A stretch of DNA of 45,291 nucleotides from Tannerella sp. (GTDB lineage: Bacteria; Bacteroidota; Bacteroidia; Bacteroidales; Tannerellaceae), in assembly GCA_031289275.1 (NCBI GenBank), contig JAITPV010000252.1, positions 1 to 45,291 on the forward strand, given 5' to 3'. A program made the position numbers and the translations under genes. The notes under the pieces were generated by a model that had not been told where the DNA came from, ran no database searches, and saw only the letters and a list, made by a program, of their open reading frames with translations. This document shows, in pieces, positions 39,049 to 45,012 of the stretch; within the stretch, counting starts at the first letter, position 1, and each line of letters opens with the position of its first letter.

Positions 39049-39782
39049 TATTCATTATTTGATTTATCTTCATTCTTTTCTGTTTCTTTCCCGTGGTGGT
39101 GGCTGAGGGCGTTTTTATAGCGGTCTACAGTCACATTCCAAACCTTGATAAACGGCGCATACGCAGCATCTCCCTCGACCAGCGTCAAGGCTTCGATGCG
39201 TTCGACGATGTCCAGATAGCAACGGTTGGTTTGGCGGCGCACATCCAGCACCTGGAGTTCGGTTTTGCCGGCCGCTTCGTGTGTACGTTCGTATATGGCC
39301 GCTTCAAAATCGTGGTTGGCGCGTTCCAGTTCGTCCACCCATCCGTCGAGGTTCAGCGTTTTGACGGCAGGGGCATACGTTCCGCGAAATTCCTGCAAGA
39401 TATTATAGATGGCGGCTGTTTCTTCGCTGTAGGGTTTAGCGGCCAAATCGCCGTAATGATCCAGCAGGAGGGTGAGTTGGCCGGCTGCTGCACGTTGCAC
39501 GGGGTCAAAATGGTATCCGGCCGATTTCACGGCAGCCGTCAGTCCGCGAAAAATATCGTCGCGGTGTTTGTCTGCTGCGACAAGCGATGTCGTATAGCTG
39601 CTTTTAATGATTTTCTCCAGCGCTTCGTCGGCCTGGGCATAGAGAGCCACAAATACGGCGAACAACTCGACAATGTTCAATGTCTTCGGCGATGTTTCTT
39701 CGACGAACCGTTTAAATTCGGTGAAGAAATTAAACCATTCTTCGTTGCGAAAATCAGTAAGTTTGATTCGTTTAATTTTCAT
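39048..39782 (-). CDS. DUF6261-like helical protein
   Basis: The 244 residues start MKIKRIKLTDFRNEEWFNFF and end in a charged HHHGKETEKNEDKSNN tail. The first line, the helix LNLDGWVDELERANHDFEA and the finish YAPFIKVWNVTVDRYKNAL are what I recall of DUF6261, an all-helical family of unknown function common in Bacteroidales. No signal peptide or catalytic motif is visible. It leads a two-gene operon with the beta-helix protein (one-base overlap). Its leader has four 42-bp repeats and a near-perfect palindrome. The family name is from memory and needs a profile search. Confidence 0.65.
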   Translation of the reverse strand: MKIKRIKLTDFRNEEWFNFFTEFKRFVEETSPKTLNIVELFAVFVALYAQADEALEKIIKSSYTTSLVAADKHRDDIFRGLTAAVKSAGYHFDPVQRAAAGQLTLLLDHYGDLAAKPYSEETAAIYNILQEFRGTYAPAVKTLNLDGWVDELERANHDFEAAIYERTHEAAGKTELQVLDVRRQTNRCYLDIVERIEALTLVEGDAAYAPFIKVWNVTVDRYKNALSHHHGKETEKNEDKSNNE

Positions 39783-39834
39783 AGTGTATCATATATATTG
39801 AGTTATTGTTAATTTTCCATATCCGGACAATCGC

Positions 39835-40002
39835 TTGGAGCATCCCACCGTTGGTGTTGATCTTCCCCGAAGTCATTTGGAGCGTCCCACCGTCGGTGTT
39901 GACCTTCCCCGAAGTCATTTGGAGTGTCCCACCGCCGGTGTTGACTTTCTCCGGAATCATTTGGAACGTCCCACCGCCGGTGTTGACTTTCTCCGGAGTT
40001 AA
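39835..40002. repeat. four tandem 42-bp repeats (2 x 21)
   Basis: Units start at 39835, 39877, 39919 and 39961, each opening TTGGAGCGTCCCACCG-like and continuing GTTGACCTTCCCCGAAGTCA-like. Each splits into two diverged 21-bp halves that both open TTGR and carry a CCC at about position 10. Spacing is exact. The array lies in the leader of the DUF6261-like gene. Confidence 0.9.
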
Positions 40003-40004
40003 TT

Positions 40005-40033
40005 GAAAGTTCCGACCAATGGTCAGAACTTTC
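40005..40033. repeat. 29-bp near-perfect palindrome
   Basis: The arms GAAAGTTC-C-GACCA and TGGTC-A-GAACTTTC meet around a central A, with one mismatched pair. It sits at the promoter-side edge of the 42-bp repeats. It could be an RNA hairpin in the leader or an operator for a dimeric regulator. Confidence 0.85.
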
Positions 40034-40125
40034 CACAAGCAAATGAGATATTTTAAAATCATCGTACAAACAGTCCTTTTGGAAAAAAATCCGTTATGCT
40101 CTTTTTTCGTTAAATTAATTGCCGA

Positions 40126-40133
40126 CAAATGTA
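40126..40133 (-). promoter_or_regulatory. -7 promoter motif of the DUF6261 operon
   Basis: The minus strand reads TACATTTG, a TAnnTTTG match. Its context, TTGCCGACAAA followed by TGTA on the plus strand, nearly repeats the promoter at 43056-43063. The leader would be about 340 nt and contain the palindrome and the four 42-bp repeats. Confidence 0.5.
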
Positions 40134-40805
40134 TGGCGTTTTTTAGAATTGAGATACCAAGAAAGGTTAATTCGTGTAGCGTATATCCTCCTATTATGCT
40201 TAAATATCATTAAATCTGCTGTTATTGAGGTGATTTTGGAAATTGAAACCTGAAAATGGAGCATGGAGAATGATGAATTATGAACTGCCCCCCAATGAAG
40301 CGCAGCGATTGGGGGCAGTGAAGATAGTACTCTCACTTACACCCGTAAGGGTTGAATAAAAAAGAGCAAAATTATTCAACCTTTCAGGTTGTAGTATGTA
40401 TGGATGATCGCTTATCCCCCAATCGCTGCGCTTCATTGGGGGTTATTCATATTAAGACCTCCGGTCTTTTCCCGACACACCAACATTCCCTGATTAGCCC
40501 ACCCGTCATTGGTAAGAATGAAGCAGGCGCCGATGCACTATATCTGTCGGTTGTTTGGGCGATTGCTTCACTGCGTTCGCAATGACGGGCGATTGTGCGG
40601 CATTCCCGACCCCCAACCTCCGGCTACGGAGGTGGTTCTGTAAGAGAAATAAGGAAATAAGGGGGGCTTGTGTGACCGCTATGGCTACTAAGGGCGCCCT
40701 CTCATCCTATCCCCCAATCGCTTGGGGGGTATTCACATGAAGACCTCCGGTCTTTTCCCGACACACCAACATTCCCTGACCAACCCCACCCGTCATTGGT
40801 AGGCT
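40134..40805. repeat. gene-free stretch of short palindromic repeats
   Basis: No gene is supported. It holds the inverted 154-bp copy B (40289-40442), a hairpin ATTGC/GCAAT at 40562-40583, CCTCCG/CGGAGG at 40617-40632, and a directly repeated block of about 95 bp (40416-40514 and 40711-40801) containing GACC-TCC-GGTC. The repeat block ends just before the stop of the HU-BACON gene. Confidence 0.75.
40289..40442 (-). repeat. 155-bp palindromic element, copy B (inverted)
   Basis: The reverse complement matches copy A at 36894-37048 over almost its whole length, with only a few substitutions in the inner hairpins. Together the two copies flank the DUF6261/beta-helix operon in opposite directions. 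Confidence 0.85.
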
Positions 40806-41687
40806 CTATTCGGCAACCATTGCTTTCAGTCGCTTGCCGCTTTCGGTAACGAGGATCAGCGCCCGGCCTTTCGGCAAATCGCGCCATTCGATGACGGCGC
40901 CGGCAGGGGCTTTCGCAACGAGCCGGCCGGTGAGGTCGTATACGGCGGTGATCCGAACGGCCGGCGCTTCGATCGCTTCGATACCGGCGGCATTACCTTC
41001 GCGCACGATTATGATCACGTAGCTTTCCCGGTTGCCGTCTTCTGCAGTGACGGTCAGGTTGAACACGTTCTCGCCCACCGTCAGACTGTGCATACCCGCG
41101 CCGGAGACCGACGAACCGGCATGATTCGGCACGGCCGTGAGCGTGACGCTCGCTGTCGCGTATGGAACGGTGGCCTGATACGACGTTACACCTGGGTCGA
41201 AGGCCGGACTGAGCGTTACGCCGCCGGAGAGACTTAGGGCCGACAACGTGCCGTCGCTGCTTGGAACCGGCGGCGGCTGGTTGAAACCGGACTGCGTCAC
41301 CGATACCGTCTGCGTGAGGCTGCCGCCCGAAAAGACAACGGTCGTACTCCGTGCGCCTGTCAACGGATTGGCTACCGCCGTCACGTTCGCGCTACCCGAA
41401 ACAATACCGATTGAAATCCAGTCCGCGTCACAAATTACCGTCCAGCTGACGTTGCCACCGACGGTAATTTGCCTTGTGCCGCCGTCCGCACCGAACGACA
41501 GGCTCGCCGGCGATACCGTCAACTCATCTTCCGCCTCCTTCGGATTCAGTGTTGTTTCCTCGGCCAGCAACCGGGCCACGTCTCTTTCCTTCACTAATCC
41601 CGTGCTTTTCAACACGGGATACCACAATTTGGGGATCGACGGATTCGCCGGGTTCCCACGTTCTACTTTATTATAAAATACAGGCAT
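40806..41687 (-). CDS. HU-like / BACON / cadherin-like fusion protein
   Basis: In 293 residues three kinds of module are visible. Residues 1-54 (MPVFYNKVERGNPANPSIPK, then LWYPVLKSTGLVKERDVARLLAEET broken by a short turn) look like the N-terminal part of a Bacteroidetes HU-type DNA-binding domain of the HU-HIG kind. Residues of about 56-138 are a BACON domain (LTVSPASLSFGADGG, TTVVFSGGSLTQTVSVTQSG). Residues of about 145-232 are a cadherin-like beta-sandwich (LSLSGGVTLSPAFDPGVTSY, NLTVTAEDGN). The last 60 residues (VYDLTGRLVAKAP, DLPKGRALILVTESGKRL) resemble a T9SS sorting tail. There is no signal peptide. The function and location are unclear. Confidence 0.75.
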   Translation of the reverse strand: MPVFYNKVERGNPANPSIPKLWYPVLKSTGLVKERDVARLLAEETTLNPKEAEDELTVSPASLSFGADGGTRQITVGGNVSWTVICDADWISIGIVSGSANVTAVANPLTGARSTTVVFSGGSLTQTVSVTQSGFNQPPPVPSSDGTLSALSLSGGVTLSPAFDPGVTSYQATVPYATASVTLTAVPNHAGSSVSGAGMHSLTVGENVFNLTVTAEDGNRESYVIIIVREGNAAGIEAIEAPAVRITAVYDLTGRLVAKAPAGAVIEWRDLPKGRALILVTESGKRLKAMVAE

Positions 41688-42110
41688 AATGGAATAAGTT
41701 AATTAATTGGAAAATATAAATCAGGGCACACAGCCGGCTAAGATGGCCTCTCCGCACCCTTGACCAACCCAAAATAAGTTGGACTTGTTTTTTTATTTGA
41801 AGAAAAATATTTGATTTCGCGTGCGCGTCCGAGCGTTTAATAGTAGGCTAACAGTGGTGTGTGTTTAAAAAAGAATGACATACGGCCAAATCACAACCGT
41901 TAAAGATGCGTAAGGCGCTGATATGTATTCCTTGTAAGTGCATTTATTTTTTTATTGATTCATTAAAAACTTATGCTCGCAAAAATACATGACTTTTCGA
42001 TAACAGATACGATCTTGCAAACATATTACAGTTAAAGGCGATTCAATCTTCAGGGATTCAATGGATTTAAAGGCAGAGTCTACAAAGGCTGCCACAGGGG
42101 TACGCCCCTG
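41688..42110. other. intergenic region upstream of the HU-BACON gene
   Basis: No gene is supported in these 423 bp. A minus-strand TATTTTTG at 41980-41987 could be the promoter of the HU-BACON gene with a leader of about 290 nt. CAGGGG/CCCCTG at 42095-42110 forms a tight hairpin around a TACG loop directly after the kinase stop codon, with no U-run. The rest shows no repeat or frame worth naming. Confidence 0.55.
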
Positions 42111-42977
42111 CTATATATCAAAAAACACAGGCGCCGGCGTATGGTCGGATGAATGATAAAGAATCAGCCCGTCTATGGGGCTTTTGATAATGGAACCAAG
42201 TCGTACCCCCATATCGGTGGCAGCTTCTTCCAGGATCGCTTTGAAATGGTGGGCTACCGAACCCACAAAATGGGCCGGATAGCTCCGGTAATTATATTTC
42301 ATCACATTCCGTTTCAAAAACGACTGGAATCGTTCCAAAACCAATTTGTGTATGCTTGGCTCCTGGATATAGTCGTATAAAAAAGGAGAAAAACTGGCCA
42401 GAAAACGGTTTGGAAACGGCTGTCGATAGACGCGATCCATAATTTCAGAGAGTGTCAGGTTGGTACGTTTAAAAAATGCAGCCTTCAATTCAGGCGTAAT
42501 CATATCCTTCAACAGGTCTTTAACTAATTGCTTTCCCAGATCTGCTCCCCCGCCTTCATCTCCAAGTATGTAACCTAACGGCGAAACTGTTTTTGCGATC
42601 TGTTCGCCATCATAAAAACACGAGTTGGAACCTGTTCCCATGATGCAGGCAATGCCGGCTTCCATTCCGCACAGACTGCGGGCGGCGCCCAATAAATCGG
42701 TGTGTGCTTCGACCGTCTCTGCCGGGATATGCCGCATAATCACTCTGCGCATCACCTCCACTTTGTCAAAGATACAACCGGCGCCATAAAAATAGACGGA
42801 ATCAATCTGTTGTTGATGGATGGAGGGCAATAGTGTCTGCACAATCTCCTTTTCCATTTCTTCTTCCGATTGAAAAAATGGATTAAAGCCTTTCGTATGT
42901 ATAGACCGAACGATTTCTTCCTGGTCTACTACACACCAATCTGTTTTTGTTGAGCCACTATCTGCTATCAGTATCAT
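42111..42977 (-). CDS. BadF/BadG-type ATPase, probable N-acetylglucosamine kinase
   Basis: The 288 residues have the ASKHA kinase motifs: phosphate-1 ILIADSGSTKTDWCVV at the start, phosphate-2 IMGTGSNSCFYDGEQI, and GYILGDEGGGADLGKQLV. This set fits sugar kinases of the BadF/BcrA group, commonly annotated as N-acetylglucosamine kinases in Bacteroidetes; the substrate is inferred. I chose the ATG at 42977 because motif 1 begins there. An upstream start at 43058 would add a basic segment that overlaps the promoter. Confidence 0.85.
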   Translation of the reverse strand: MILIADSGSTKTDWCVVDQEEIVRSIHTKGFNPFFQSEEEMEKEIVQTLLPSIHQQQIDSVYFYGAGCIFDKVEVMRRVIMRHIPAETVEAHTDLLGAARSLCGMEAGIACIMGTGSNSCFYDGEQIAKTVSPLGYILGDEGGGADLGKQLVKDLLKDMITPELKAAFFKRTNLTLSEIMDRVYRQPFPNRFLASFSPFLYDYIQEPSIHKLVLERFQSFLKRNVMKYNYRSYPAHFVGSVAHHFKAILEEAATDMGVRLGSIIKSPIDGLILYHSSDHTPAPVFFDI

Positions 42978-43055
42978 TCTCTTTTTCCGTCTTTTATACT
43001 CTATCGCCCACCCCTTTTGCGGCCAGAAGATAGATATTCGCTTCTTATTTGCCGA

Positions 43056-43063
43056 CAAAGGTA
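43056..43063 (-). promoter_or_regulatory. -7 promoter motif of the kinase gene
   Basis: The minus strand reads TACCTTTG, exact TAnnTTTG, 79 nt before the ATG at 42977, with a TTTG about 23 nt upstream. It supports the shorter start, since a start at 43058 would lie within the motif. Confidence 0.6.
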
Positions 43064-43216
43064 GTGTTTTTTATTATAAAAAACCACAAATAACCATGAA
43101 AAAAACGGATTAAATGTTTATATTCCCTTTTTGTGCTCATTTCGCCGTAAATAGTGACGGCAGATATAAATTTTTCAGCTAACTTTATGGCCTCAAATTT
43201 AACGAACAAGTATAAT

Positions 43217-43789
43217 ATGACAACACGGAAAAAACGGATTTCAAGTATTCTGATTGTATTAGCGATTCTCATGATGTGCGGGACGCATACAGATCGTTTG
43301 GCAATGGGGTCAAACAGAGCAACCGGCGCCTATTGTCTCCCGGAAGGAGTTTTGATTTCGATTCCCGGCAGCGAAAAACCGGTCGAACAACTGGCGGTAG
43401 GCGATTTGATTTTATCATACAATCCCCAAACGAAACAAGTGGAAGAAGCGGCCATCTTAACGTTAGCCGTCCAACATCATCATGTCCTTTATGAACTTGA
43501 TTTTGGCAGCACAAAAATCAAGGTGGCAGAAGATCAGCCCTTTTATTCGACCGGGAAATATTACTCGGTCGTGAAAAACGACACACACGGAGTACAAACA
43601 AAGGCTTTTGCTGTCGGGCAAAAAATAGATTTTCTGGTTGACGGGAAGTTGAAGAAAGTGAAACTGAAGGAAATAAAAAAAATCGAGACGTGCGAAAACA
43701 CGCATACCATTACAGGCTTGGATAAAAACAGATTATATTTTGCCAACGGGGCTTGTATTTCCACGGAAACAGTTACTCAAGATCATTAA
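43217..43789 (+). CDS. small exported Hint (hedgehog/intein) domain protein
   Basis: The 190 residues start with a basic, hydrophobic export signal (RKKRISSILIVLAILMMCG). The remainder is one Hint domain: block A AYCLPEGVLISIPG (cysteine 40) with VEQLAVGDLILSYN, block B region KVAEDQPFYSTGK, and the end ITGLDKNRLYFANGACIST. In active Hint domains block B has a T-x-x-H; here the position is E-D-Q, so the histidine is replaced. No toxin or adhesin segment is attached. The ATG at 43217 is the best start; upstream ATGs give an unlikely N-terminus. queA starts 5 nt after its stop, so the two are co-transcribed. Confidence 0.82.
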   Translation: MTTRKKRISSILIVLAILMMCGTHTDRLAMGSNRATGAYCLPEGVLISIPGSEKPVEQLAVGDLILSYNPQTKQVEEAAILTLAVQHHHVLYELDFGSTKIKVAEDQPFYSTGKYYSVVKNDTHGVQTKAFAVGQKIDFLVDGKLKKVKLKEIKKIETCENTHTITGLDKNRLYFANGACISTETVTQDH

Positions 43790-43794
43790 CGTAA

Positions 43795-45012
43795 ATGATA
43801 TTTCCGGGGGAAATTCATATAGCTGATTATCTTTATCCGCTTCCGGACGAACGGATTGCCAAATATCCGCTTTGCCGGCGCGATACGTCCAAACTGCTGG
43901 TCTACAAACAGGGCGAAATTCACGAAACGCAGTTCTGCCGTTTGCCGGAATGGTTGCCCGAAAAATCGTTGCTGGTTTTCAACAATACACGGGTGATTCA
44001 AGCCCGCTTGTTGTTCCGGAAAGCAACGGGGGCGGCCATCGAAATTTTCTGTCTGGAACCGGTCGAACCTCCTGATTACGCACAGGTTTTCCAACAGACC
44101 GGACAGTGCGTTTGGAAATGCCTGATCGGAAACTTGAAAAAATGGAAAACCGGACGGTTACGGCAAACCTTCCGGCTCGGAGGCGAATCCATTGCATTAA
44201 CGGCAGAACGCAAAGCGACTTGTGGAGACAGCCATTTGATTACGTTCACCTGGGATCACCCGTCCTGCACTTTTGCCGAAATACTGGATGTGGCCGGGAT
44301 ATTGCCCATTCCGCCCTACCTGCACCGTGAAACGGAACAAACCGATTTGTCTACCTATCAAACCGTCTATTCCAAAATCAAAGGCTCGGTGGCTGCTCCT
44401 ACGGCAGGATTGCATTTTACGCCCGAAATCCTGGCGGCATTGGACGCAAAAGGCTTCGGACGCGAAGAAATCACCTTGCACGTGGGCGCCGGAACATTCA
44501 AACCGGTCAAGACGTCAACCATCGGCCGGCACCCCATGCACACGGAATGTTTTACCGTCCGGCGGCAAACGATCGCACGCTTGCTTGACGCGCTGGGTCA
44601 TGTGATTGCCGTAGGTACGACATCCGTACGCACACTGGAAAGCCTTTATTATATCGGCGCAACGCTGGCGCAGCATCCGGATGCTTCCGGCGCGGAATTA
44701 ATCGTCCGGCAATGGGAGCCTTATGAAACGGCGTTCCCTGAAATCACGCCGGCCGAAGCGTTACGGCAAATCCTCGACTGGTTAGACCGGCGGCAATCCG
44801 GCGAACTGGTTTCGGCGACCCAAATACTGATTGCTCCCGGCTATACGTTCCGAATCGTCCGCGGCATGTTAACAAACTTCCATCAACCGCAGAGCACGTT
44901 GTTGTTGCTTGTTTCCGCTTTTGTAAAGGGCGACTGGAAACGCATGTATGACTACGCGCTGACCCACGATTTCCGTTTCTTAAGCTATGGAGACAGTTCT
45001 TTGCTGCTGTGA
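43795..45012 (+). CDS. queA: S-adenosylmethionine:tRNA ribosyltransferase-isomerase
   Basis: QueA adds the cyclopentane ring of queuosine in tRNA using SAM. The 405 residues carry VAAPTAGLHFT, LHVGAGTFKPV, GRHPMHTE, VGTTSVRTLESL and NFHQPQSTLLLLVSAF, with YGDSSLLL at the end. It is about 50 residues longer than most QueA proteins, mostly in the middle, and may be the longer QueA paralogue present in many Bacteroidetes. It follows the Hint gene by 5 nt. Confidence 0.92.
   Translation: MIFPGEIHIADYLYPLPDERIAKYPLCRRDTSKLLVYKQGEIHETQFCRLPEWLPEKSLLVFNNTRVIQARLLFRKATGAAIEIFCLEPVEPPDYAQVFQQTGQCVWKCLIGNLKKWKTGRLRQTFRLGGESIALTAERKATCGDSHLITFTWDHPSCTFAEILDVAGILPIPPYLHRETEQTDLSTYQTVYSKIKGSVAAPTAGLHFTPEILAALDAKGFGREEITLHVGAGTFKPVKTSTIGRHPMHTECFTVRRQTIARLLDALGHVIAVGTTSVRTLESLYYIGATLAQHPDASGAELIVRQWEPYETAFPEITPAEALRQILDWLDRRQSGELVSATQILIAPGYTFRIVRGMLTNFHQPQSTLLLLVSAFVKGDWKRMYDYALTHDFRFLSYGDSSLLL

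What the first reader, a model, noticed from the sequence alone, without database searches (positions are those of the whole stretch)
40806..41687. Truncated HU-like DNA-binding segment fused to extracellular-type domains
The N-terminus is that of a cytoplasmic nucleoid-type protein, but it is only about 54 residues long, roughly half the usual domain. It runs straight into BACON, cadherin-like and T9SS-like segments with no signal peptide. DNA binding and surface display are contradictory locations. Either the HU part has been reused as an export or anchoring module, or the gene is a recent recombinant. Related HU domains fused to Ig-like modules have been described in Bacteroidetes (HU-HIG), but this half-domain with BACON looks unusual.
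Basis: partly seen in the sequence, partly recalled or inferred. Interest (0 to 1): 0.68.

Follow-up and report, generated by a model that had tools for sequence, protein, structure and literature searches.

The report
Broken DNA-binding gene joined to surface-protein fragment
A real but most likely accidental gene fusion: the first half of a DNA-binding protein gene was joined, most likely by a deletion, to the remains of a surface-protein gene, and similar leftovers in related bacteria suggest decay rather than a new kind of protein.

Summary
ORF 40806-41687(-) is one intact 293-codon frame. Residues 1-53 are the N-terminal half of an HU-HIG (PF18291 family) protein: 73% identical to a full-length 134-aa relative and about 60% to one elsewhere in the same genome. 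They run straight into BACON, cadherin-like and a T9SS-like tail. No frame holds the missing HU half, and there is no signal peptide.

The 'reused export or anchoring module' reading is not supported. The cut falls inside the second HU helix, so the half-domain should neither fold nor bind DNA. The tail lacks about 18 residues and matches no T9SS model. No other genome of 41 in the genus or 125 in the family carries the fusion.

The better explanation is a deletion relic. In this genus HU-HIG genes are multi-copy and often lie just upstream of exported-protein genes; in the own genome one lies 249 bp before a BACON-T9SS gene. HU heads cut at codons about 29-54 recur: one fused in frame to a DUF6528 tail, one out of frame to a TonB-receptor interior whose intact HU-receptor pair survives in the same genome, others ending in stops. 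Misassembly is not excluded (single MAG, no reads).

The parts
40806..41687 (-). fusion ORF, 293 aa: HU-HIG N-terminal half, BACON, cadherin-like, degenerate T9SS-like tail
   Evidence: single open frame; domain hits
41529..41687 (-). codons 1-53, N-terminal half of an HU-HIG protein (strand extension, first helix, start of second helix)
   Evidence: profile E=6e-23; 73% identity to L014; DNA similarity to intact HU genes runs from -18 or -26 to codon 54 and stops there; GC 0.50 as in intact HU genes
41525..41530 (-). junction GAA|GAT at codons 53/54; GC changes from 0.50 to 0.60
   Evidence: no junction k-mer shared with other fetched loci and no repeat at the junction in the own genome
41286..41525 (-). 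BACON domain, residues 55-134
   Evidence: PF19190 E=3.2e-8, PF13004 E=5.2e-7; PDB 8va4_A matched at E=6e-9
40998..41243 (-). cadherin-like beta-sandwich, residues 149-230
   Evidence: PF12733 E=3.7e-12; AlphaFold pLDDT 93-95 over about 150-230
40809..40991 (-). T9SS-sorting-tail-like end, shorter than in relatives by about 18 residues
   Evidence: aligns with tails of L013 and L015; no Pfam/NCBIfam hit
40708..40804 (.). dispersed repeat of about 100 bp abutting the stop codon; another copy at 40413-40514

Best explanation
The ORF is an in-frame fusion relic. An HU-HIG gene stood upstream, on the same strand, of a gene for an exported BACON/cadherin-like/T9SS protein. A deletion removed the C-terminal half of HU, the intergenic region, and the signal peptide and N-terminus of the exported protein, and it happened to join the two in frame. 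The HU start and upstream region would drive translation of a cytoplasmic product. That product should neither bind DNA (only the N-terminal extension and first helix remain) nor be exported (no signal peptide, incomplete T9SS-like tail). Shown here: domain content, junction, absence of orthologues, parallel relics, and the linkage of HU-HIG genes to exported genes. Inferred: the deletion event at this locus, lack of function, and expression.
For: Junction: similarity to intact HU genes starts at -18 or -26 and stops at codon 54; GC goes from 0.50 to 0.60 at the junction. Parental arrangement exists: in the own genome (C166) an intact HU-HIG lies 249 bp upstream, same strand, of a BACONx2 T9SS-tailed gene whose first BACON begins ADELTVS, like the fusion's EDELTVS; in G027:C62 an HU-HIG precedes a BACON gene. 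Across 55 HU-HIG genes with at least 1 kb downstream, 44 have a same-strand next gene and 18 of those are signal-peptide-like, versus 10 of 98 control ORFs (exploratory Fisher p=7e-4). Parallel relics: G027:C374, HU cut at codon 29 and joined out of frame to a TonB receptor from residue 267; the receptor fragment is 95% identical to the intact receptor beside an intact HU in the same genome (G027:C371), about 1.29 kb is missing in that copy's coordinates, and GTC is shared at the junction. G023:C318, 40 HU codons in frame with the last third of DUF6528. G005:C181, 46 HU codons then a stop, with a TonB-receptor start 15 nt after the stop. G023:C173, 51 HU codons, then a stop a few codons on, GH92 gene downstream. 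G040:C49 and G037:C329, short heads. Fold: intact HU-HIG is predicted at pLDDT 94 with helix 49-68, which the cut interrupts; residues 1-54 in the chimera have pLDDT about 42-66.
Against: The exact pre-deletion parent pair for this locus was not found: relatives carry different genes beside BadF, and the closest BACON/cadherin-like gene is only about 35% identical. The BACON-to-tail frame is still fully open, so decay is either recent or the product is kept. Codon usage is ordinary in both halves. Other relics may have arisen differently. The genome is 85% complete and no reads were available.
Confidence: 0.72

Rival explanations
1. Fusion by recombination between distant copies: HU-HIG and BACON genes are multi-copy, and the HU head was spliced to a BACON gene that was not its neighbour.
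For: HU-HIG genes reach 24 matches per genome and BACON repeats are common in the genus; the locus beside BadF is variable.
Against: No long homology at the junction; adjacency of HU-HIG and exported genes makes a deletion simpler, and the G027:C374 relic shows that route directly.
Confidence: 0.12
2. A functional cytoplasmic chimera: expression of a BACON/cadherin-like module under HU-HIG control, with the HU remnant as a tolerated leader.
For: Intact 293-codon frame; ordinary codon usage; a second in-frame HU-head fusion in G023:C318.
Against: Absent from all other genomes searched; other HU heads end in stops or go out of frame; the tail is incomplete.
Confidence: 0.09
3. Assembly chimera in a fragmented metagenome-assembled genome (252 contigs).
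For: Dispersed repeats lie at many contig ends and one abuts the stop codon; no reads available.
Against: The junction itself carries no repeat in the own genome, and BadF-queA to its right are syntenic with relatives.
Confidence: 0.05
4. The HU half has been reused as an export or surface-anchoring module.
For: Position at the N-terminus of extracellular-type domains.
Against: No hydrophobic segment; an HU head elsewhere precedes a gene that still carries its own signal sequence (G005:C181); not conserved.
Confidence: 0.02

Closest known systems
HU-HIG (PF18291) / NCBIfam TIGR01201 HU_rel
   Same: Residues 1-53 are homologous to the N-terminal half; nearest full-length relatives hit PF18291 and match 4FMR and HU/IHF structures by fold.
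   Different: Helix 2 onward, the invariant LG..G motif, arm and C-terminal helix are missing; the fragment alone does not reach the model.
HU-like domain followed by an Ig-like domain in Bacteroidetes proteins (BVU_2165, PDB 4FMR; the Ig reading is from memory)
   Same: HU-type N-terminus followed by another module.
   Different: There, as I recall, a complete HU domain precedes the Ig module; here half a domain precedes BACON and cadherin-like modules of exported proteins.
Exported BACON/cadherin-like T9SS proteins of the genus (L013, 329 aa)
   Same: BACON, cadherin-like and tail in the same order, about 35% identity.
   Different: L013 has its own long N-terminal region with a hydrophobic segment and a recognised T9SS tail; the fusion has neither.
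HU-head deletion relics in the same genus (G027:C374, G023:C318, G005:C181, G023:C173)
   Same: HU-HIG cut at codons 29-54 and placed before exported-gene sequence.
   Different: Different partners; only G023:C318 is also in frame.

Membership tests
HU-HIG (PF18291) | N-terminal half homologous to HU-HIG proteins | tested here: met
   Profile from four genus members E=6e-23; 73% identity to L014
HU-HIG (PF18291) | Complete domain of about 125 positions including helix 2, saddle strands, arm and last helix | tested here: not met
   Match ends at residue 53; no second half in any frame; cut inside helix 49-68 of the modelled relative
HU-HIG (PF18291) | Reaches the curated Pfam score | tested here: not met
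   No hit at E<=1; a cut genuine HU-HIG fragment also fails
HU-HIG (PF18291) | DNA binding | not testable with these tools
   Needs a binding assay; the structural elements for it are absent
BACON-domain protein | BACON profile match above cut-off | tested here: met
   PF13004 30.0 vs 25 bits, PF19190 33.8 vs 25 bits
Cadherin-like beta-sandwich (PF12733) | Profile match above cut-off | tested here: met
   47.0 vs 24.2 bits
T9SS cargo | N-terminal signal peptide | tested here: not met
   The frame starts with the HU sequence, no hydrophobic stretch at the N-terminus (read from the translation; no SignalP available)
T9SS cargo | C-terminal sorting domain (TIGR04183, PF18962, NF033708) | tested here: not met
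   No hit for the tail at E<=10 in NCBIfam or E<=1 in Pfam, while relatives L013 and L015 hit; 18-residue gap in alignment
Deletion relic of an HU-HIG/exported-gene pair | HU head and exported-gene interior joined, intact pair known at the locus | tested here: inconclusive
   Head and interior are joined; intact HU-BACON pairs are known at other loci, not at this one

The most novel reading that the evidence does not exclude
HU-HIG genes in these Tannerella relatives are cis-linked partners of surface-protein genes, and their first 30-55 codons act as a leader that is kept when the rest is deleted; the fusion would then be one outcome of a recurrent rearrangement that rewires expression of surface proteins.
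Probability: 0.08. Interest if true: 0.55.

Novelty: new member of a known kind. Interest (0 to 1): 0.25.

Why it matters
As a protein it is probably of little consequence, but it warns against reading domain order in a single metagenome-assembled genome as a designed architecture. The by-product, that expanded HU-HIG genes sit in front of exported-protein genes and repeatedly lose their second half there, is a testable lead on what this large unexplained HU family does.

Tried and rejected
Frameshift or sequencing error hiding a full HU: rejected, no HU C-half in any frame. Orthologues with the same order: none in 41 genus genomes, 125 family genomes with residues 1-135, GTDB contigs (two HU-only matches), viral contigs, phages (cadherin/BACON part only) or plasmids. 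Phage or plasmid origin: no support. Syntenic empty site: relatives have unrelated genes beside BadF, so no clean before/after comparison. Partial HU matches at contig ends (G027:C140, G021:C199, G016:C95) were set aside as cut by the assembly. G027:C224 is a frameshifted full-length HU, not a head-only relic. Codon-usage contrast across the junction was uninformative. The literature library does not hold the paper that I recall as defining HU-HIG, and text searches found nothing on HU linked to exported genes.

Full report
Observation. The reported ORF is real: 40806-41687 on the minus strand, ATG start, 293 codons, no stop. Pfam gives BACON at 55-134 and a cadherin-like beta-sandwich at 149-230. 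Residues 1-53 are HU-HIG: a profile built from four full-length relatives scores them at E=6e-23, and whole-genome searches give 73% identity to a 134-aa HU in the same-genus genome G027 and 60% to a 130-aa HU at C133 of the own genome. Full-length relatives hit PF18291 at about E=1e-18 or better. No HU second half exists in any frame nearby. The tail is T9SS-like by alignment only; it lacks about 18 residues present in L013 and L015 and hits no sorting-domain model, whereas those two do.

Anatomy of the junction. DNA similarity to intact HU genes begins at -18 (L014) or -26 (L002), runs through codon 53 and ends at GCGGAA|GATG. GC is 0.50 on the HU side, like intact HU genes (0.48-0.53), and 0.60 beyond it. 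No repeat in the own genome spans the junction, which argues against a repeat-driven misassembly but does not exclude one. An AlphaFold model of the intact relative L002 (pLDDT 94) shows an N-terminal strand extension, helix 34-44, helix 49-68, saddle strands and a last helix and matches 4FMR and classical HU/IHF structures by fold; sequence profiles match HU structures from position 30 or so onward. The fusion keeps the extension, helix 1 and the first turn of helix 2. In a model of the fusion, residues 1-54 have pLDDT of about 42-66 while the cadherin-like domain is at 93-95; BACON is poorly modelled (about 49-58) with this shallow alignment. From the known role of the HU arm and saddle in DNA binding (established knowledge of HU/IHF), the fragment should not bind DNA; that is inference.

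Distribution. No other genome searched carries the fusion: 41 of the genus, 125 of the family with residues 1-135 as query, GTDB contigs, viral contigs, plasmids. BadF (42111-43058) and queA (43795-45012) to the right are syntenic in close relatives, but the genes beyond BadF differ among those examined, so an intact ancestral locus was not found.

What it most likely is. HU-HIG genes are multi-copy in the genus, up to 24 profile matches per genome. Of 55 with enough downstream sequence, 44 are followed by a same-strand gene and 18 of these begin with a signal-peptide-like segment under a crude rule, against 10 of 98 control ORFs (Fisher p=7e-4; exploratory, ORF calling was simple and the control unmatched). 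In the own genome the HU at C166 lies 249 bp before a BACON-BACON-T9SS gene. A systematic search with HU N-terminal halves then found further HU heads without tails. The clearest is G027:C374: 29 HU codons, about 90% identical to intact HUs of the same genome, run into a TonB-receptor interior that is 95% identical to residues 267-490 of the receptor beside the intact HU at G027:C371; the join is out of frame, about 1.29 kb is missing relative to that intact pair, and GTC is shared at the join. G023:C318 is a second in-frame case: 40 HU codons and the last third of DUF6528. G005:C181 has 46 HU codons, a stop, and a TonB-receptor gene starting 15 nt later with its own signal sequence. G023:C173 has 51 HU codons and soon a stop, with a GH92 gene 275 nt on. 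G040:C49 and G037:C329 keep 29 and about 36 HU codons. This mixture of in-frame, out-of-frame and terminated heads is what undirected deletions in HU - exported-gene pairs would give. The window ORF fits as an in-frame example. Confidence 0.72; the deletion at this very locus and the lack of function are inferred.

Alternatives. The last is the weakest: no hydrophobic segment, no conservation, and the sorting tail is incomplete.

Caveat and open lead. All head-only relics found break at codons about 29-54 and none at 60-110, although longer heads would have been easier to detect. This was noticed after the fact on few cases. It could mean that longer truncated HUs are harmful or that the first codons matter as a leader. 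Together with the HU-HIG/exported-gene linkage this is the only part I would follow.

Novelty. Fusion or relic genes from deletions between neighbours are a known kind; this is another one. It should not be filed as an HU-HIG protein (domain incomplete) or as a T9SS cargo (no signal peptide, no recognised sorting domain).

Noticed in passing
window 43154-43789 (+): A 211-aa exported-looking protein with a weak Hint-domain match (PF13403 E=0.005) sits between BadF and queA; in close relatives these two genes are only about 250-280 bp apart with nothing between, so it looks like an insertion.
   Followed up: partly
window 40413-40514, 40503-40588, 40708-40804: Short dispersed repeats (about 85-100 bp); 70 matches to the 40500-42110 query in the own genome, many near the first bases of contigs, so they probably break the assembly.
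   Followed up: partly
window 39835-39999: A 42-bp tandem repeat (3.9 copies, 90% match) gives PEKVNTGGG-like peptide repeats in ORF 39772-40128; peptide repeats of a similar kind occur near HU relics in L071 (2557-2866) and L031 (258-662).
   Followed up: no
L123, L129, L146, L045, L002, L009 and others: Full-length HU-HIG genes are repeatedly found 50-400 bp upstream, same strand, of genes for TonB receptors, glycoside hydrolases, lipoproteins or T9SS proteins.
   Followed up: partly
L071:4682-5197 (-) (G023:C318): A second in-frame chimera: 40 residues of HU-HIG fused to the last third of a DUF6528 protein (PF20138 positions 210-310 of 327), also on the BadF side of the locus.
   Followed up: yes
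L076:2004-2273 (-) (G024:C41): A C-terminal-only HU-HIG remnant following, in another frame, an RNA-binding-protein-like (RRM, glycine-rich tail) sequence.
   Followed up: no
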